Positions 31,247-61,031 of a stretch of DNA of 64,000 nt are shown here, piece by piece; the first letter of the stretch is position 1, and every line of letters begins with the position of its first letter. Under the pieces are notes generated by a model that saw only the letters and a program-made list of their open reading frames with translations, had not been told where the DNA came from and did not search any database. The stretch comes from a virus: the IMG/VR virus record IMGVR_UViG_3300045918_000157, positions 22,400 to 86,399 of that record. The stretch is one strand, 5' to 3'. The translations under genes were made by a program, and so were the position numbers.

Positions 31247-32704
31247 TTATAGACCCAAAAGGGATTTTCGCAGACTTTCTTTTGTAACCTCTACCTGAAC
31301 CGCACAATCATCGTTTCGTAACAGGTGCTCTAACAGTCGTTCCTGTATTGTTCCAAGTGCAACCCCGATGCGTTGCGTGGGAATATTCTTCTGGCCCATT
31401 CTATCTATCCTTCCTAGGGCTTGCCTCATATATATAGGTACCGTTGTCAATTCAAAGAACAGGCTCTCCCAACACACCTCCTGTGGGTTCAACCCTGCAC
31501 CAGCCGACTGATACTGCGCTACCAGTATACGTGTATTGGGGTCGTGCATAAACGCCTCTACAGACTTCTCCGCATTGGACCCGCCATAGGCAGCAACTGC
31601 TCTGTACCCCTTGTTCAATAGGTACTCAGTTACCCTGCCCGATGTCATCTTGTAGTTGGTCCATACGATCAGCTTACTGGCATCAAGTTCGTTACACCTT
31701 GTCTGCTCAATCGTTAGATCAAGCAGGTCAAAGGTGGTGGACCTCTTCTTCGGGTCATTGCTAAAGTGTTCAAAGTTAGCAACAATCTGTTGTAGAGCGT
31801 GATGCAGTCTGGTTGCCGTTGATGCGTCGATCTTTTCTCCGTTGTCAAACTTTAGCATTTGCTCGTCAACAAGCTTTTCATACAAGTCGGAATGCTCATT
31901 GCTAAGCTCATACGTGCAGTCAGGAAAGTTTGGCGGGTTGTTATACCCGTGCAGTTGAAGCTTGCTTCTAGTGATGGTCTGCAAAGCAAAGTCCCTAGCC
32001 ATCAGATTAAGATGCTGATAGGCTATGGGCTTCTTGAAGAAGTCCTTCTCAGCTACATACATATTCTCGAACTGCCCATAACTCCGGTAGAGTTCTGGCG
32101 TCTTCAAAGTTATGTATGCGTATGCGTCAAGTGGTTTGCTGATAGGTGTTCCGGTAAGCATCTGCAACGACTCACCAAGTGTCATTGCTTGTATGTTACC
32201 GAACAGCTTTGACTCTATGTTCTTCAGTGCGTGTGCCTCATCCAGTATAACCTCTGCATGATTACGCCGGCGAAACTCAAGCTTCAGCCTTGCGTAATCA
32301 ATTCGGTATAGTGAATGACTAACTACAACCCAACGAGCGCCGCTGATCTCAATTTCTCTACGCTCTTTTGGGTTGCCTCGGTACGTAACAACCTTGGACG
32401 AAACTTTATTGAGCCACCTCACCCAAGGTGTTATCAGGATTGGCGGCACCGCAACGATAGTGAAATCGTGGCCTCTCATGAGAGAGACAGCTGTACTTAC
32501 TACGGTCTTGCCACCACCTACAGCATAGAAGTTCCCGCTAACATTCAGCTGCGAAAACTCATTAACGTCTTCAACTTGCAGGGGTGATAGTGTAAAGCCG
32601 CACCTTTCGCTGAATCCATACGCTGCATCAAACTCCGCGAACGTCTTGTAGACCGAGTTGGGCTTGTACTTGGGTAAGTTCTGGACTTCCATTACAGTTG
32701 ACAT
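31247..32704 (-). CDS. SNF2-type DEAD/DEAH helicase
   Basis: The 485-residue SF2 protein has a Walker A variant FYAVGGGKTVVSTAV, the DEAH box VILDEAHALKN, motif III MLTGTPISKP, motif V QYQSAGAGLNPQ and motif VI MRQALGRIDRMGQ. The last is typical of SNF2-family ATPases. Such phage enzymes remodel protein-DNA complexes or help origin opening and recombination. The ATG overlaps the upstream gene by 77 bases; a second ATG lies 12 bases further in. Confidence 0.88.
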   Translation of the reverse strand: MSTVMEVQNLPKYKPNSVYKTFAEFDAAYGFSERCGFTLSPLQVEDVNEFSQLNVSGNFYAVGGGKTVVSTAVSLMRGHDFTIVAVPPILITPWVRWLNKVSSKVVTYRGNPKERREIEISGARWVVVSHSLYRIDYARLKLEFRRRNHAEVILDEAHALKNIESKLFGNIQAMTLGESLQMLTGTPISKPLDAYAYITLKTPELYRSYGQFENMYVAEKDFFKKPIAYQHLNLMARDFALQTITRSKLQLHGYNNPPNFPDCTYELSNEHSDLYEKLVDEQMLKFDNGEKIDASTATRLHHALQQIVANFEHFSNDPKKRSTTFDLLDLTIEQTRCNELDASKLIVWTNYKMTSGRVTEYLLNKGYRAVAAYGGSNAEKSVEAFMHDPNTRILVAQYQSAGAGLNPQEVCWESLFFELTTVPIYMRQALGRIDRMGQKNIPTQRIGVALGTIQERLLEHLLRNDDCAVQVEVTKESLRKSLLGL

Positions 32705-36005: not shown

Positions 36006-36239
36006 CTATGAACGTCCTCCCGAAGGCTTTAGAGGCGTTTTAAGGGCCTGCGGAGGGTTCAAGCCACAGCCATATTGGGACAAGAAATTGAGGGCCTTGG
36101 GCGTCGATCTGGAGGCCGTCCAGATTTGAAAACGCTCCGGTAATTCTTGCAATCTAGCCTTTTCCGTACCAGAACCACGAAATTTGACTTCAAGTATTCT
36201 ATCAGTCAAATCGTCAAGACTGCATGGTGAGGCAGCCAT
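36006..36239 (-). CDS. Doubtful hypothetical ORF in partition-repeat region
   Basis: The frame encodes 77 residues but has no ribosome site, and its start lies within the inverted-repeat block. One segment, ERFQIWTASRSTP, resembles NRFQIWMASKGCETP in the protein at 42903-43187, which is the only hint of a real gene. Treat as low confidence. Confidence 0.22.
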   Translation of the reverse strand: MAASPCSLDDLTDRILEVKFRGSGTEKARLQELPERFQIWTASRSTPKALNFLSQYGCGLNPPQALKTPLKPSGGRS

Positions 36240-36280
36240 GCAGTCTTGCAGTCAAACAGTCAAGCTGCCATGCCATCAGA
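36205..36280. repeat. Inverted and direct repeats, candidate centromere site (downstream)
   Basis: A 13-bp perfect inverted repeat (CAAGACTGCATGG / CCATGCAGTCTTG, 36215-36227 and 36236-36248) is followed by GCAGTCAAACAGTCAAGCTGCCATGCC. The block 36232-36259 shares 23 of 28 bases with 37553-37580 on the other side of the ParA cassette. The gap 35948-36275 otherwise holds only one doubtful ORF. Confidence 0.6.
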
Positions 36281-36497
36281 ATCTCAGGCCGCGCTTGGCG
36301 AAGTCAGCCTCAATCAGGCCCATGACATAGCGCTGTATCTTGGTTCTCTCTGCTGTAGTCAGGTGGATGACATGCTCCCACTGGACCCTGTTCATGCGCA
36401 GGGTCAGGTTTACGACATCACCCGGCAGCTTGGCTGGCTTTTCCTCCCTGACAGGTGGAGGAACTTTCATGAAGTCTAAAAGACTTGGCTTAGCCAT
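36276..36497 (-). CDS. Ribbon-helix-helix partition protein (ParB-type CBP)
   Basis: The ATG at 36497 with GGAG upstream gives 73 residues. A Pro/Lys-rich flexible N-terminus precedes VVNLTLRMNRVQWEHVIHLTTAERTKIQRYVMGLIEADFAKRGL, a strand-helix-helix pattern of RHH DNA-binding proteins (the strand is VNLTLRM). In type Ib partition loci such small dimers bind centromere repeats and activate ParA. It is the last gene of the ParA operon and is flanked by the repeats. Confidence 0.68.
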   Translation of the reverse strand: MAKPSLLDFMKVPPPVREEKPAKLPGDVVNLTLRMNRVQWEHVIHLTTAERTKIQRYVMGLIEADFAKRGLRF

Positions 36498-36498
36498 A

Positions 36499-36765
36499 TC
36501 AAACTCCAACCATGTGCTTAACTAACAGACTATCGTACAAAGTGTAAGCCTGCTCAAACTTCCAAGCTAACAAGTCAAGTGTCTTGGACTTCTCTATCTC
36601 TACGCTAAAAGGATTAGAGATAGGCCCACTACGGCTTGGCCTAAGCTTATACTCTCTAAACTGAATGCGAATATTTTCGCATTCAGTGTAGCACTTACTA
36701 AGTTCAAGCATGTAAGCAGCCTGCTCATCGGCAGTTAACTTCTTCCACCTTGCATTAACTAACAT
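36499..36765 (-). CDS. Hypothetical protein in ParA operon
   Basis: The ATG at 36765 overlaps the end of parA by 11 bases and gives 88 residues. The sequence is helical (RWKKLTADEQAAYMLELSKCYTECENIRI, KTLDLLAWKFEQAYTLYDSLL). It sits between parA and the RHH gene, so it may be a partition accessory protein. No family recognised. Confidence 0.55.
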   Translation of the reverse strand: MLVNARWKKLTADEQAAYMLELSKCYTECENIRIQFREYKLRPSRSGPISNPFSVEIEKSKTLDLLAWKFEQAYTLYDSLLVKHMVGV

Positions 36766-37420
36766 GCTCCACCCCACAAGCTTCAATGCTTGTCTCTACT
36801 GCAGCATGTCCGGTGGCTAAGTAACTGAGAATATTTGTGCAAACTTCAGCGACTTCTTTAGCGGGCTTGCCATCCGGTTCAAACTCTGCTACAGCTTGAC
36901 CAGATACTAGTGCCCTCCACATAGATCGCCAATTGTTGACTTGACCCACTACTGGATGACCAGTAGCTTCAAGTGCTATCCTTGTAGCAGAAATCTCAGG
37001 GGCCTTTTGAGGACAGTCAGATAGCAAGAACACGAAGGGCTTGCCACCTATTAGCTTTAGTGCATCAGGCATCGCTGCAAGATCGAGAGGCTCAGGCCTT
37101 ACAGGCACTACTATCAGATCAGCTACTCCAATGATCTGCGCTGTCACTGCTGACACGCTAGGAGGCGAATCAATAATAATCAGGTCGTAACCATCAGCTA
37201 CGGCTCCTGCTATAGCTTGAGGTAAAAAACTTCCAGGTACAGGAACTACCACCGGAGACTCGTTTAGTCTCTGGTTTCTCCATGCAACAGCACTAGCTTG
37301 AGGATCACAGTCAAGGATACATACATTAAGACCTGTACCAATGGCTGCTACCGACAGGTGTACGCAGAGAGTTGTCTTTCCAGCACCCCCTTTTGGGGAA
37401 AAAATGGCAATGACTGGCAC
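36755..37420 (-). CDS. parA: ParA-type partition ATPase
   Basis: A GTG at 37420 with GGAG upstream gives 221 residues; a TTG 15 bases earlier is less likely. The deviant Walker A IFSPKGGAGKTTLCVHL, the switch region CILDCDPQASAVAW and the Walker B-like DLIIIDSPPSVSAV identify the ParA/MinD class. It lacks an N-terminal HTH, as in type Ib (ParF-like) partition ATPases. With the RHH protein and flanking repeats it should segregate a low-copy replicon. Confidence 0.85.
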   Translation of the reverse strand: MPVIAIFSPKGGAGKTTLCVHLSVAAIGTGLNVCILDCDPQASAVAWRNQRLNESPVVVPVPGSFLPQAIAGAVADGYDLIIIDSPPSVSAVTAQIIGVADLIVVPVRPEPLDLAAMPDALKLIGGKPFVFLLSDCPQKAPEISATRIALEATGHPVVGQVNNWRSMWRALVSGQAVAEFEPDGKPAKEVAEVCTNILSYLATGHAAVETSIEACGVEHVS

Positions 37421-37450
37421 GATTTTTGACTCCAAGTTGTTAAGGCTTGG

Positions 37451-37480
37451 ATTATCAGCATATTGGTGTCGTCAAGTCAA
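37451..37480 (-). promoter_or_regulatory. Promoter of the ParA cassette
   Basis: On the minus strand TTGACT (37475-37480) and GATAAT (37451-37456) are separated by 18 bases, each a 5/6 consensus match. The tandem repeats lie about 55 bases upstream, so binding there could regulate the operon. Confidence 0.6.
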
Positions 37481-37533
37481 GAACTCTTTCAGGCATGGGG
37501 CCGATCAGGCGTTAAGGCGTGGGGCCTCTAACT

Positions 37534-37581
37534 CATGCAGGTATGCAGTCAAGCAGCCATGCAGGTATGCAGTCAAGCAGT
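37534..37581. repeat. Tandem 24-bp repeats, candidate centromere (upstream)
   Basis: Two head-to-tail copies of CATGCAGGTATGCAGTCAAG plus CAGC or CAGT differ at one base. Each contains two ATGCAG cores. They lie directly upstream of the parA promoter, the usual place of type Ib parC/parH sites. Confidence 0.65.
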
Positions 37582-37948: not shown

Positions 37949-38035
37949 CTATTTCTCACTGTGCTTAATAGCGTACAAAGCTACCAAGGCGTAGATGATG
38001 GTGAAAGCTGTAGTGCTGATAATTAATGGAGACAT
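37949..38035 (-). CDS. Tandem single-pass membrane microprotein, copy 3
   Basis: A 28-residue frame encodes MSPLIISTTAFTII then YALVALYAIKHSEK: a hydrophobic helix ending in the same HSE motif as the two genes before it. It begins eight bases after copy 2 and ends two bases before the next gene. There is little ribosome-site sequence, so it probably depends on coupled translation. Confidence 0.6.
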   Translation of the reverse strand: MSPLIISTTAFTIIYALVALYAIKHSEK

Positions 38036-38043
38036 TATGATTG

Positions 38044-38130
38044 TCACTCACTATGTGTAACTACGTACCATGTAGTAAGTCCTGCAATAACACCGATAAC
38101 TGCGAGGATAATTACAAGCGGTGTTATCAT
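38044..38130 (-). CDS. Tandem single-pass membrane microprotein, copy 2
   Basis: A 28-residue frame encodes MITPLVIILAVIGVI then AGLTTWYVVTHSE. The M-x-PL start, the single hydrophobic helix, the aromatic WYV boundary and the C-terminal HSE match copies 1 and 3. It is spaced five bases from copy 1. Confidence 0.6.
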   Translation of the reverse strand: MITPLVIILAVIGVIAGLTTWYVVTHSE

Positions 38131-38135
38131 GGTGT

Positions 38136-38219
38136 CTACTCACTGTGTTTAGTAACGTACCAAACAATAAGGCAGATAACGGCAGCAGAAACAATCAAGG
38201 TTACGATTAAGGGGGACAT
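38136..38219 (-). CDS. Tandem single-pass membrane microprotein, copy 1
   Basis: A 27-residue frame encodes MSPLIVTLIVSAAVIC then LIVWYVTKHSE. Its ATG overlaps the stop of the upstream two-helix protein (TAATG). It shares the MSPLI start with copy 3 and the WYV-x-HSE end with copy 2, so the three are paralogues. Confidence 0.6.
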   Translation of the reverse strand: MSPLIVTLIVSAAVICLIVWYVTKHSE

Positions 38220-41944: not shown

Positions 41945-41974
41945 TTGTCATGTTATCAAAATCGGGTGTATACG
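41945..41974 (+). promoter_or_regulatory. Possible resolvase promoter
   Basis: TTGTCA (41945-41950) and TATACG (41969-41974) are 18 bases apart on the plus strand in the divergent gap. The following leader contains GAGGGG/CCCCTC inverted repeats around 41981-42029, which could be resolvase or regulator binding sites. Confidence 0.4.
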
Positions 41975-42114
41975 AGGCGCGAGGGGTCGTTCTCTTTAGA
42001 CCCCCAAAATTTAGGGTATCCCCTCTCGAAATTAGTTCTCGCCAATTTAATCTGAGAATGCTACCATGTCGGCGGGATTTCCAGAAACTTTCTACAACTC
42101 ACAGAGGCTTTACC

Positions 42115-42684
42115 ATGCTAATCGGCTATGCGCGTGTTTCCACACTAGATCAAGATGTTAATGTTCAACTGGATGCGCTTACCAAAGCAGGCTGTGAGCG
42201 CCTGTTCGATGACAAGATGAGTGGAGCCAAGGTTGACCGTCCCGGCCTGACAAGAGCGTTAGACATGCTTCGTTCAGGCGATTCTCTCGTTGTCTGGAAA
42301 CTTGACAGACTAGGACGTAGCATGAGAAACCTAGTCGATGTCTCTACTGAGTTACAAAAGCAGGGAGTGCAACTGATAAGCCTTACTGACTGCATAGATA
42401 CCAGTACTGCATCAGGTAGGTTTTTCTTTAACGTAATGGCAAGTCTTGCACAGATGGAGCGTGAACTTACTGTAGAGCGGACTCAGGCGGGACTTGCATT
42501 AGCTAGGCTTAATGGCCGTGTCGGTGGTAGGCCTAGATTAATGACTGTCCGTAAGGTTGAAGCTGCCAAAGCCATGCTAGCCAGCGGTATCCCACCGCGT
42601 GACGTAGCTAATAACCTTGGCATCTCAATCCCTACCCTATACCGTTGGATACCAGCGAGTACGGTGCCGGTGCCTACGCTTTAG
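42115..42684 (+). CDS. Serine recombinase (resolvase/invertase)
   Basis: The ATG at 42115 with AGAGG upstream gives 189 residues, the normal size for Tn3/Hin-type small serine recombinases. Residues 1-135 hold the catalytic domain: IGYARVSTLDQD (catalytic Ser), RPGLTRAL, VVWKLDRLGRSMRNL and the TSTASGRFFFNVMASLAQMERELTVERTQAGL helix. The GRVGGRPRL hinge and a C-terminal HTH (RDVANNLGISIPTLYRWI) bind DNA. It is the only rightward gene in the accessory array, so it may be a later acquisition. It could resolve multimers of a plasmid-like genome or invert a segment. Confidence 0.9.
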   Translation: MLIGYARVSTLDQDVNVQLDALTKAGCERLFDDKMSGAKVDRPGLTRALDMLRSGDSLVVWKLDRLGRSMRNLVDVSTELQKQGVQLISLTDCIDTSTASGRFFFNVMASLAQMERELTVERTQAGLALARLNGRVGGRPRLMTVRKVEAAKAMLASGIPPRDVANNLGISIPTLYRWIPASTVPVPTL

Positions 42685-55821: not shown

Positions 55822-55853
55822 GATAACTCCTTTTAAGTGTGTTGTTACGTGGT

Positions 55854-55906
55854 GCCTGCCACCTGTTGTGCAAGTGGCAGGCGTCATGTAGTGGCCTAGC
55901 GGCCAC
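55854..55906 (-). terminator. Two adjacent hairpins between leftward genes
   Basis: GCCTGCCAC/GTGGCAGGC (nine-base stem, 11-base loop) and GTGGCC-TAGC-GGCCAC lie just after the stop of the acidic/basic protein gene. There is no long U-tract, so partial termination or mRNA stabilisation is more likely than full termination. Confidence 0.45.
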
Positions 55907-58434: not shown

Positions 58435-59442
58435 TCACTCCAACGGAGCGTCTGTAGCAAAGTGAACTAAGGGCCTCATTGGAATTAACTCAGCGGCTGC
58501 TATCTCTTCTTCCTCTTTAGCCTTCCTAGCTGCCATTCGCTTATCACTAGCGGCTTTAGCTAGTGCCCTCTCTTCGGTGCGGCTCTCATAATCTGCCACT
58601 TCGTCCTCACCATACTTTTCTACCATATTTGCTCTATTTATAGCAGCTAATTGCTCGGCCGTAAGGTCAGGCATGGCTTCTATGTCAGCAAAATCATTAA
58701 TAACTGCTGGTTGCACAGCTTTAGCCCAAAGACACCCCTCATCCTCATAAGTCACGAAAGTTGACCCTTCAGGCTTCGACTCCATCCACATACGTTGACG
58801 CACAGGACCACCGTCTATAGTAAACAAGTACTGAGCATCATCCTTGTCTGCAAGCTTAAGAGCGCCTTTCGGTATGTATTCTTCGTGAGGCTCTTCATCG
58901 TAGTCTTCAGACACTACCTGCTCAAGCTTTTGTATCCTTGCTGTAGACCGAGGTACTGCAATCTTCCCTTCAGGGTGTATTTCAAGCGTTTTGCTAGGAT
59001 TCGGTCCTAGCATGTCAAACTCTTGAGTATCCTGCTGCCACAGTGGGAATACATGCCACGCACCAAGCCCGTACATCCCCGGCTTGCTCATGCAGACATT
59101 GCCATCACGTATCTCTACCTCAACTCTTTGGTCCTCATAGTAAAAGGTAGGGTTTTTATGCCTCCAAAAAGCTGCCGCTAGCGTGTTTGTTGTAGCCCGC
59201 ATTATTAGCATCTCAAGTACTACAAGTACTTCTGAGTCTTCGACGGGGGTCTTTAAGACCTGCGATGCACTCTTGCCGCTGCACCGTCTGCAACCCTTTG
59301 CTATATGCCTTGCCTCCATCTCACCCTTGTTGCCGCAATCTGCACATGTGAACTTGAACTTTGGTTGGGGTGCCTCTACACGCTCACCGAATATTAGGCT
59401 TCCAAGGCGAATACCTTCAAGGTTTAACTTAGGCCTAGCCAT
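58435..59442 (-). CDS. Zinc-ribbon protein with long charged tail, paralogue of next gene
   Basis: The 335-residue protein opens with EGIRLGSLIFGERVEAPQPKF then KFTCADCGNKGEMEARHIAKGCRRC, a four-Cys ribbon closely related in layout to the N-terminus of the next gene. A folded middle domain (TLAAAFWRHKNPTFYYEDQRVEVEI) also has a counterpart there. The C-terminal 130 residues are charged and helical (RALAKAASDKRMAARKAKEEEE). It is probably a DNA- or RNA-associated accessory protein. Confidence 0.62.
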   Translation of the reverse strand: MARPKLNLEGIRLGSLIFGERVEAPQPKFKFTCADCGNKGEMEARHIAKGCRRCSGKSASQVLKTPVEDSEVLVVLEMLIMRATTNTLAAAFWRHKNPTFYYEDQRVEVEIRDGNVCMSKPGMYGLGAWHVFPLWQQDTQEFDMLGPNPSKTLEIHPEGKIAVPRSTARIQKLEQVVSEDYDEEPHEEYIPKGALKLADKDDAQYLFTIDGGPVRQRMWMESKPEGSTFVTYEDEGCLWAKAVQPAVINDFADIEAMPDLTAEQLAAINRANMVEKYGEDEVADYESRTEERALAKAASDKRMAARKAKEEEEIAAAELIPMRPLVHFATDAPLE

Positions 59443-59866
59443 TCCCGTTCTCCTTTACAACATAAAGTTTTGGTGCAGTGTCCTGTTCGTGCACTGAGTT
59501 AACTATCAGGCCGTCAAGGTCCAAGTATGAGACTACAGCAGCAGACGCTTGCATCTTCACACTCACCCTGCGACCCGCGAGATAGAAGGCGGTATCAGGA
59601 TTGTCCTGCAAGGCCTTGTGCAGTTGAGCAGCAGGCATCTCAAGTGCCCTAGTGCTGGTTACAGCAAGCATCGTAGTTACGGTCGCCTGCGCGTTTGGGG
59701 GGCAATGGCACTTTGGACAACCATTACTTAAGTACCTGTAGTTGCGCTCGCCTTTGTGCTTGCAGTGCAAGCATGTGTAGTGGTATCGGGGTTGGTCGCT
59801 AGGTATTCGCTCACCTATTAGCAGTGTCCCTAGTGTTCGACCGGTTACGTCAAGTTGTTTCGACAT
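59435..59866 (-). CDS. Zinc-ribbon protein, first gene of the leftward operon
   Basis: The 143-residue protein has GRTLGTLLIGERIPSDQPRYHYTCLHCKHKGERNYRYLSNGCPKC, a zinc ribbon, and a second part (ALQDNPDTAFYLAGRRVSVKMQ) that parallels the larger neighbour's YYEDQRVEVEI segment. It is the first gene under the leftward operator-bearing promoter, so it is likely among the earliest expressed products. Confidence 0.62.
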   Translation of the reverse strand: MSKQLDVTGRTLGTLLIGERIPSDQPRYHYTCLHCKHKGERNYRYLSNGCPKCHCPPNAQATVTTMLAVTSTRALEMPAAQLHKALQDNPDTAFYLAGRRVSVKMQASAAVVSYLDLDGLIVNSVHEQDTAPKLYVVKENGNG

Positions 59867-59915
59867 TGGTACGTCCTTTTCAGCACTAAGCAGTTCATGT
59901 TTTCGAGTAAATTTC

Positions 59916-59945
59916 TTTATAACACGATTTTTCGTGTAAATTACA
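59916..59945 (-). promoter_or_regulatory. Leftward extended -10 promoter with operator 1
   Basis: On the minus strand TGT-TATAAA (59916-59924) is an extended -10. The operator TGTAATTTACA (59935-59945) lies 13 bases upstream of the -10 hexamer, over the -35 region. It would drive the large leftward accessory operon. Confidence 0.6.
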
Positions 59946-60454
59946 AAAGTATTGTAATCAATAAATAGGGGGGTCTCCCTCGCGCAAACCGTGTTTTGAA
60001 ATCACATGGTGTACACGGTGTGATTTCAAAACTCTATAAAGAGGTTTTTCAACACCGCACCCTAATTAAATACATAGTTTTGTAATTTACATTTGTATTT
60101 ATACTGTTATTGTAATAAACAAGGTTTTATGAAAAGCTTGTATCAGTTGAAGGTCTTTTAAAGCTTGCTAAAGCCTGTGCAAGTGCCGCAAAATTTCCGA
60201 TAACATGGCAATATAACAGAGCTAAGTAGTTTAATACCAATTCTACAATTGAATCGTGCAAACTTGACAGAAACGGGTTTAATACGTAAGCAAAAATGTA
60301 ATCTATTTTGTAATTTTGAAATAAACACTAAGTCAAGTCAGTTGACCTTACGCGGCGATTTATCAACCTTGCACACCAGTCTTAGATAGCAGCTGTTATT
60401 CTGAACAATTTCATTCATACACTGTGTAAATTACAGGCCGGAGTGTAAATTACA
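59935..60454. promoter_or_regulatory. Four copies of palindromic operator TGTAAWTTACA
   Basis: Perfect copies of the 11-bp palindrome lie at 59935-59945, 60081-60091 (read as TGTAATTTACA), 60425-60435 and 60444-60454. The last two are spaced 19 bp apart, about two helical turns. Extra half-sites (TTGTAAT) are scattered between. Copies 1, 2 and 4 each sit 8-13 bases upstream of a -10-like hexamer. The pattern fits a dimeric repressor or activator. Confidence 0.7.
59993..60032. repeat. 40-bp near-perfect palindrome
   Basis: GTTTTGAAATCACA and its exact reverse complement flank a 12-base centre that itself contains the palindrome GTGTACAC. Eighteen of 20 base pairs match over the full dyad. It lies between operators 1 and 2, and could be a second regulator site, a cruciform or an origin element. 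Confidence 0.75.
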
Positions 60455-60470
60455 AGAATTTTGCTATGAT
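60444..60470 (+). promoter_or_regulatory. Rightward extended -10 promoter with operator 4
   Basis: TGC-TATGAT (60462-60470) is an extended -10. The operator at 60444-60454 ends ten bases before the hexamer and covers the -35 region, so a bound protein would block or replace polymerase contacts. Transcription should begin near 60477. Confidence 0.6.
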
Positions 60471-60476
60471 TTAAAT

Positions 60477-60710
60477 AGCAAAAGTCAAGAATGACAAAGG
60501 GAATGACATTGAGCCTGTGCAAGACTCAATGTTATTGACTCTGATATTGAAATTAGGATTAAAGCTTGCTGGTTTTGTGCTAGGATCGCAGCTTGAAGCT
60601 TTCATTTCGGCCCTTGCAAGACCTAAGAAATGAAAGCTTCAATTACTGACCCTTGGGGATTTCCTGTTGCAAGCTGGAATGAGCCAAGGGTTTTGTTTTT
60701 GGAGCCTCTT
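60477..60710 (+). ncRNA. Structured leader RNA with three hairpins sharing a loop motif
   Basis: Hairpin A is CATTGAG/CTCAATG (60507-60531). Hairpin B is a perfect 16-bp stem (60593-60608 with 60627-60642). Hairpin C is the terminator at 60650-60690. The loops of all three contain TGCAAG (60518, 60614 and 60667). The B and C loops both contain TTGCAAG, which can pair with CTTGCAA, so a kissing-loop is possible. The leader ends at the ATG at 60711. Confidence 0.5.
60650..60700 (+). terminator. Intrinsic terminator/attenuator before the rightward gene
   Basis: CCCTTGG pairs with CCAAGGG (60684-60690), with an inner TTCC/GGAA stem, and is followed by TTTTGTTTTT. It lies ten bases before the ribosome-site and ATG of the only gene in this transcript, so termination there would switch the gene off. 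Confidence 0.7.
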
Positions 60711-61031
60711 ATGACCAACGATGACACTACACGCAACGAAGAAATAACCAGTTGCAAACCAGCCACCTTACACAAGGTAATGAAGAGTCCTTCTAACGTT
60801 AGAAAGATAGATAGAGTGGCTCGAAGTAATTCAGATGTGCAAGGTTATGTCAACTTTCTATTAGGAGCTTCAAAGCTCCGCGAAGAGTACATAGAACTGT
60901 TACTTGAAAGGATCGACCTTTTAAACCTTGAGTTGGACAATAAAGACTTATTGCTTGACGATGTATATGATGGAATCATGGCAGAGCGAGCCAACGAGGA
61001 ACTGACAAAAGGAAATGACATTAGAACTTGA
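60711..61031 (+). CDS. Hypothetical helical protein under attenuator control
   Basis: GGAG six bases before the ATG at 60711 makes this the best start (106 residues); the ATG at 60630 lies inside hairpin B. The protein has a basic middle (HKVMKSPSNVRKIDRVARSN) and an acidic coiled-coil C-terminus (EEYIELLLERIDLLNLELDNKDLLLDDV). No family was recognised. As the only product of the rightward switch promoter it is a candidate regulator or replication factor. Confidence 0.6.
   Translation: MTNDDTTRNEEITSCKPATLHKVMKSPSNVRKIDRVARSNSDVQGYVNFLLGASKLREEYIELLLERIDLLNLELDNKDLLLDDVYDGIMAERANEELTKGNDIRT

What the first reader, a model, noticed from the sequence alone, without database searches (positions are those of the whole stretch)
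59867..60710. Divergent switch region with four identical palindromic operators
TGTAA-W-TTACA occurs perfectly four times within about 520 bp. Copies 1 and 4 overlap the -35 zones of opposed extended -10 promoters, and copy 2 lies 8 bases before a TATACT. This symmetrical layout is that of an early-gene or lysis/lysogeny switch. The cognate regulator was not recognised; the winged-helix-like protein at 47.3 kb and the 60.7 kb product are candidates.
Basis: partly seen in the sequence, partly recalled or inferred. Interest (0 to 1): 0.75.

Follow-up and report, generated by a model that had tools for sequence, protein, structure and literature searches.

The report
Four-operator control region of a phage
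In the main control region of a little-known 86-kb bacterial virus, one short mirror-symmetric DNA word occurs exactly four times and nowhere else in the genome, most likely as the docking sites of an unidentified switch protein that sets when the early genes are on; this is a normal kind of phage switch, with some unusual DNA and RNA hairpins around it.

Summary
Observation confirmed. TGTAAWTTACA occurs exactly four times (59935, 60081, 60425, 60444), with no one-mismatch copy, and nowhere else in the 86-kb circular phage genome. Shuffles give 0.05 per window; 0 of 5000 simulations of the AT-rich region itself reach four. The copies lie in an 844-bp non-coding gap between the start of a long leftward early operon and a one-gene rightward unit (60711-61031), the most AT-rich 500-800 bp of the genome.
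Best reading: operators of a dimeric regulator controlling divergent early promoters. Clusters of the same word in several unrelated phages and one plasmid-like contig also sit upstream of promoters or of regulator/ParA genes, although no shared regulator was found. The regulator is unidentified. The proposed promoters are weak consensus matches, fewer than chance expects. "Lysis/lysogeny" is only indirectly supported, by a ParA gene with centromere-like repeats and a resolvase.
A replication origin overlapping the operators is the main rival. New member of a known kind; moderate interest.

The parts
59935..59945 (.). Operator copy 1 (TGTAAATTACA), 13 bp upstream of the TATAAA of a TGtTATAAA extended -10-like site on the - strand
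60081..60091 (.). Operator copy 2 (TGTAATTTACA), 8 bp upstream of TATACT on the + strand
60425..60435 (.). Operator copy 3 (TGTAAATTACA), starts 19 bp before copy 4
60444..60454 (.). Operator copy 4 (TGTAAATTACA), 10 bp upstream of the TATGAT of TGcTATGAT on the + strand
59916..59924 (-). Putative leftward extended -10 (TGTTATAAA), early operon promoter P_L; weak consensus
   Evidence: sequence; not confirmed by promoter scan
60462..60470 (+). Putative rightward extended -10 (TGCTATGAT), promoter P_R; overlaps an inverted repeat TTTTGCTAT/ATAGCAAAA
   Evidence: not confirmed by promoter scan
59935..60091 (.). Nested inverted-repeat structure: copies 1 and 2 are the ends of 18-nt outer arms (94% complementary) whose centre (60013) coincides within 0.5 nt with that of the inner 40-bp palindrome
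   Evidence: I2, I3; ssDNA folding of 59930-60125 z = -5.5
59993..60032 (.). 40-bp near-perfect palindrome GTTTTGAAATCACATGGTGT|ACACGGTGTGATTTCAAAAC
   Evidence: (I2)
60063..60162 (.). Most AT-rich 100 bp of the genome (79% AT), beginning just before copy 2
60477..60710 (+). Structured leader of the rightward transcript: hairpins 60506-60532, 60593-60642 and 60650-60691 with TGCAAG in or at the apex, the last followed by TTTTGTTTTT (terminator-like)
   Evidence: RNA fold z = -3.5, 0 of 200 shuffles as stable; loop motif; the last hairpin is not listed by the simple terminator scan
60711..61031 (+). Only rightward gene of the unit, 106 aa, ribosome-binding site GGAG; predicted 65-residue helix (residues 41-105); orphan
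59435..59866 (-). First gene of the leftward early operon: 143-aa zinc-ribbon-like protein (CxxC...CxxC)
58435..59442 (-). Second gene: 335-aa paralogue of the 143-aa protein (31% identity)

Best explanation
The four palindromes are binding sites (operators) of one sequence-specific, dimeric transcription regulator, probably phage-encoded. It acts at the phage's central divergent control region: bound at copy 1 it controls the leftward promoter of the early/replication operon (which starts at 59866 and runs to about 17 kb), and bound at copies 3 and 4 it controls the promoter of the rightward unit, a structured leader plus the 106-aa gene. Copy 2, placed symmetrically with copy 1 around a 40-bp dyad, would allow looping or paired binding, or control a minor rightward promoter. 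Shown: number, identity, uniqueness, location and flanking structures of the sites. Inferred: that a protein binds them, that it represses rather than activates, which promoters it controls, and that the switch serves a plasmid-like carrier state.
For: Exact fourfold occurrence far above chance and confined to this one region of a complete genome. Position in the non-coding gap between divergent units. Copies 1, 2 and 4 lie 13, 8 and 10 bp upstream of -10-like hexamers. Clusters of the same word in unrelated DNA: two copies upstream of an S24-type phage repressor gene (L007, Pfam Peptidase_S24 7e-25), four upstream of a KfrA_N gene (L008, 8e-23), three near a KorA/TrfB-like gene (L132), twelve mostly upstream of TTGAC...TATAAT promoters between small genes (L134), three upstream of a ParA gene in a Mammaliicoccus contig (L137). 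These show the word being reused at promoters. The 36%-identity (PolA) relative G005 has its own, different array of palindromes in a large non-coding gap next to early leftward genes.
Against: No cognate regulator was found; the promoters are weak and not above chance by consensus; relatives close enough to align the early region were not found, so there is no conservation test of the sites themselves. The G005 array is flanked by leftward ORFs on both sides, so it is not a divergent region. The region also has origin-like features.
Confidence: 0.6

Rival explanations
1. The region is the phage's replication origin: the palindromes are initiator-binding sites, the 40-bp palindrome and AT-rich stretch are the unwinding/priming structure. 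It may be an origin and an operator region at the same time.
For: Most AT-rich 500-800 bp of the genome; cumulative GC-skew minimum at 63.4 kb and maximum at 13.9 kb, the maximum about 40 and 46 kb from the region by the two ways round; nested inverted repeats; G005 has a long hairpin plus a palindrome array in a non-coding gap.
Against: Skew largely follows gene direction here; no Rep/initiator gene was found; sites lie irregularly (146, 344, 19 bp), unlike phased iterons; three of four sit at promoter-like positions.
Confidence: 0.22
2. The palindromes are sites of a host regulator that the phage exploits (host-encoded sensor control of early genes).
For: No phage regulator identified; AT-rich palindromes are common regulator targets (general knowledge).
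Against: Host unknown; the stricter pair pattern (GTGTAAATTACA twice within 30 bp) was found in only two genomes of the 84,980-species collection, neither proteobacterial; single sites were not surveyed.
Confidence: 0.08
3. The palindromes are a partition centromere for the ParA system at 36.3-37.4 kb.
For: The phage has ParA and a putative ribbon-helix-helix partner; in L137 three copies stand directly upstream of a ParA gene.
Against: ParA here has its own candidate centromere: 8-bp tandem repeats (YATGCAGN) at 37534-37580, with the same CATGCAG word in a hairpin at 36215-36248 next to the partner gene. The palindromes are 23 kb away.
Confidence: 0.06

Closest known systems
N15 / phiKO2 / PY54 immB region (telomere phage-plasmids; PMC4488713)
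   Same: Palindromic operators between divergently transcribed units in phages carried as plasmids; in N15 two further sites lie upstream of repA
   Different: There repressor and cro genes flank the operators and the N15/phiKO2 operators differ from each other; here four copies of one 11-bp word, and no repressor or cro gene recognised
KfrA-type autoregulation (RA3 KfrA operator; PMC7783346)
   Same: Iterated sites at a promoter; a viral contig (L008) has four TGTAAWTTACA copies directly upstream of a KfrA_N gene
   Different: RA3 KfrA uses five 9-bp direct repeats; no KfrA_N domain in this phage
Lambda OL/OR type switch (general knowledge)
   Same: Operators overlapping opposed promoters of divergent early units
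   Different: No CI/Cro pair; identical rather than graded sites; irregular spacing
Pseudomonas phage Lana (Lanavirus) and PMBT3 group
   Same: Structural/replication gene order, PolA, primase, ligase, helicase and exonuclease; long leftward operon and a 0.9-kb divergent gap (84.5-85.4 kb of Lana)
   Different: Lana's gap holds no TGTAAWTTACA; early genes hardly shared; no ParA match over the family cut-off among the relatives

Membership tests
Multi-operator divergent phage control region | Repeated identical or similar dyad-symmetric sites confined to an intergenic region | tested here: met
Multi-operator divergent phage control region | Divergent transcription units on both sides | tested here: met
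   leftward genes up to 59866, rightward gene 60711-61031
Multi-operator divergent phage control region | Sites overlap functional promoters | tested here: inconclusive
   -10-like hexamers at copies 1, 2 and 4, but no excess of promoter matches; needs 5'-end mapping
Lysis/lysogeny switch (CI/Cro type) | Repressor gene with HTH and/or S24 domain adjacent to the operators | tested here: not met
   flanking genes have no such domain
Lysis/lysogeny switch (CI/Cro type) | Temperate life style | tested here: inconclusive
   ParA, resolvase and centromere-like repeats present; no provirus or plasmid relative found with PolA in genome contigs; relative PMBT3 described as virulent
KfrA autoregulated operator | KfrA_N protein encoded in the element | tested here: not met
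Partition centromere | Repeats next to the par operon | tested here: not met
   palindromes 23 kb from parA, which has its own 8-bp repeats
Replication origin with iterons | Initiator gene and regularly spaced binding sites | tested here: not met
   spacings 146, 344, 19 bp; no initiator family hit in the scanned early proteins
Replication origin with iterons | AT-rich unwinding element and skew minimum nearby | tested here: met
   the skew minimum is about 3 kb away and skew follows gene direction

The most novel reading that the evidence does not exclude
A combined switch in a phage-plasmid: one unknown regulator family binds four identical sites that control both the early promoters and an overlapping replication origin, while the rightward unit is further gated by a leader RNA. 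The leader's TGCAAG-apex hairpins resemble two further intergenic hairpins of the same genome (55.84-55.90 kb and record position 1456-1494) whose loops, read on the opposite strand, are complementary, so RNA-RNA loop pairing is possible.
Probability: 0.08. Interest if true: 0.7.

Novelty: new member of a known kind. Interest (0 to 1): 0.36.

Why it matters
It marks the likely master control region of a poorly known group of 80-90-kb phages whose early genes are almost all orphans, gives a defined probe (TGTAAWTTACA) for pulling out the regulator, and, with the ParA system, raises the testable possibility that a Lana-like phage can be carried as a plasmid. If the leader hairpins act as suggested, it would also be a two-layer (DNA plus RNA) switch.

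Tried and rejected
Relatives of the 335-aa, 670-aa and 60.7-kb proteins in IMG/VR: none. tblastn of the two flanking genes and blastn of the region in phages: none. PolA relatives found, but the closer ones (G001 59%, G003/G004 42%) appear to be fragments lacking the early region, and none of 14 records has TGTAAWTTACA. Bacterial genomes with PolA: none. KfrA_N in this genome: none. Fold model of the 47.3-kb protein: pLDDT 42, unusable. Fold search of the 106-aa protein: no match better than E 7. Rfam: nothing. Literature for both spellings of the word: nothing relevant. Centromere reading rejected because ParA has its own repeats. The mid-gap transcripts (60100-60420 on the + strand, 60150-60480 on the - strand) fold no better than shuffles, so structure is limited to the leader and the 59.93-60.12 kb dyad.

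Full report
What was checked. The word TGTAAWTTACA is present four times exactly as described (59935, 60081, 60425, 60444), with no near-copies. The window is positions 22400-86399 of an 86,399-bp virus record. The two ends of that record overlap by 267 bp at 96% identity, and a second contig, identical over nearly all shared genes, bridges the junction (G002), so the genome is essentially complete and circular or circularly permuted (about 86.1 kb). No further copy exists anywhere in it. The cluster is far above chance under whole-window shuffles and under a model of the AT-rich region itself (0 of 5000). Among palindromic words with 5-8-bp arms it is the only one in non-coding DNA seen at least three times within 1 kb; the other clustered words lie in the GCAGC-rich coding repeat at record positions 16.5-17.1 kb.

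Setting. Genes from 59866 down to 17.2 kb read leftward and include PolA, primase, SNF2-type helicase and ATP ligase. To the right there is a single rightward gene, 60711-61031 (106 aa, start ATG with GGAG before it), convergent with another leftward block at 61.05-63.9 kb. The gap 59867-60710 is non-coding and the most AT-rich 500-800 bp of the genome. The phage is a distant member of the Pseudomonas phage Lana group (PolA 26-31% to Lana, 36% to G005, 42% to G003/G004, 59% to G001). Structural and replication genes are shared, while the early genes at 34-63 kb are nearly all orphans. The relatives therefore cannot test conservation of the sites; none of 14 relatives has the word.

Anatomy inside the gap. 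Copies 1 and 2 are not just two sites: they end an 18-nt inverted repeat (94% complementary) whose centre (60013) coincides with that of a 40-bp near-perfect palindrome at 59993-60032. The whole 59930-60125 stretch folds as a single strand far better than shuffles (z -5.5). Copies 3 and 4 start 19 bp apart and precede TGcTATGAT. The putative promoters are plausible by position (8, 10 and 13 bp between site and -10 for copies 2, 4 and 1), but their consensus is weak and a scan finds no excess over shuffles. The rightward transcript would begin with a 234-nt leader that folds better than shuffles (z -3.5) into three hairpins. All have TGCAAG in or at the apex, and the last is followed by TTTTGTTTTT and stands just before the ribosome-binding site: an attenuator or terminator by appearance, although the simple terminator scan did not list it.

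Same word elsewhere. Scans of IMG/VR and of bacterial genomes for two copies within 30 bp returned few loci. They include two copies ahead of an S24 phage repressor gene (L007), four ahead of a KfrA_N gene (L008), three near a KorA/TrfB-like gene (L132; L129, L131 and L133 carry a related arrangement), twelve distributed between small genes and mostly upstream of sigma-70-like promoters (L134), and three ahead of a ParA gene in Mammaliicoccus (L137). Some hits are not informative: L130 lies inside a structural gene, L009 has no clear neighbour, and the Saprospiraceae hits (L135, L136) were not followed. The informative ones have different candidate regulators, so this is probably reuse of a good dimer-binding word. 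They do support the reading 'regulator-binding site at a promoter'. They do not identify the regulator here: KfrA_N is absent and no CI, Cro or S24 family was recognised in the scanned early proteins.

Candidates. The 106-aa product is the natural positional candidate, but it is an orphan predicted as one long helix (residues 41-105, pLDDT about 90), with no convincing structural relative. The first two leftward genes encode paralogous zinc-ribbon-like proteins (31% identity; weak matches to endonuclease-associated and zinc-ribbon profiles).

Life style. ParA (36755-37435), a small putative ribbon-helix-helix partner (36276-36497, by eye; no family hit), 8-bp tandem repeats upstream of parA and a serine recombinase (41950-42684) look like plasmid maintenance genes. 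They make a plasmid-like carrier state, and so a need for a repressor, possible. No repressor or provirus relative was found, and the described relative PMBT3 is virulent (PMC8421299).

Rivals. An origin in the same stretch is the main rival (AT-richness, nested dyads, skew minimum about 3 kb away), and the two are not exclusive. The centromere reading is disfavoured because ParA has its own repeats 23 kb away. A host regulator cannot be excluded.

Verdict. Real, non-random, and best explained as the operator set of the phage's central control region. The switch protein and the decision it controls remain to be found by experiment.

Noticed in passing
window 60506-60532, 60593-60642, 60650-60691; 55841-55895; record position about 1456-1494 (window -20944 to -20906): Five stable non-coding hairpins with TGCAAG in or near the apex; three of the five strongest non-coding hairpins of the genome have it. 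The last two lie just after the stops of leftward genes; their leftward-RNA loops (CUUGCAC) would be complementary to the leader loop (GUGCAAG). Not seen in relatives.
   Followed up: partly
window 60158-60183 versus 60512-60523 and 60559-60570: Two exact 12-bp words of the leader (TTAAAGCTTGCT, AGCCTGTGCAAG) are repeated side by side in the middle of the control region.
   Followed up: no
window 36276-37580: ParA gene with a small putative ribbon-helix-helix gene behind it, 8-bp tandem repeats (CATGCAGG TATGCAGT CAAGCAGC ...) upstream and a hairpin with the same CATGCAG word downstream: a probable plasmid partition locus in a Lana-like phage.
   Followed up: partly
window 37949-38219 (- strand): Three tandem micro-ORFs of 27-28 codons (MSPLIVTLIVSAAVICLIVWYVTKHSE and relatives), each a single hydrophobic segment ending in KHSE/THSE; a 92-nt repeat unit.
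   Followed up: partly
window 41950-42684 (+): Serine recombinase (resolvase/invertase type) on the opposite strand to its neighbours.
   Followed up: no
record G007 (IMGVR_UViG_3300044878_000218), 79926, 80217, 80450: A Lana-like phage carries three copies of TGTTCCACGTGGAACA, which resembles bacterial parS, with no ParB_N domain found in that record.
   Followed up: no
record G005 (IMGVR_UViG_3300037244_000020), 31450-32600: Array of long TTAGCCTAC(N6)GTAGGCTAA palindromes plus a long hairpin in a 1-kb non-coding gap.
   Followed up: partly
L134 (IMGVR_UViG_3300033463_008284): Twelve TGTAAWTTACA copies between small genes, mostly just upstream of TTGAC...TATAAT promoters: looks like a phage-wide regulon.
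   Followed up: no
both ends of the record (267 bp): Ends overlap at 96% rather than 100%, suggesting strain variants in the assembly.
   Followed up: partly
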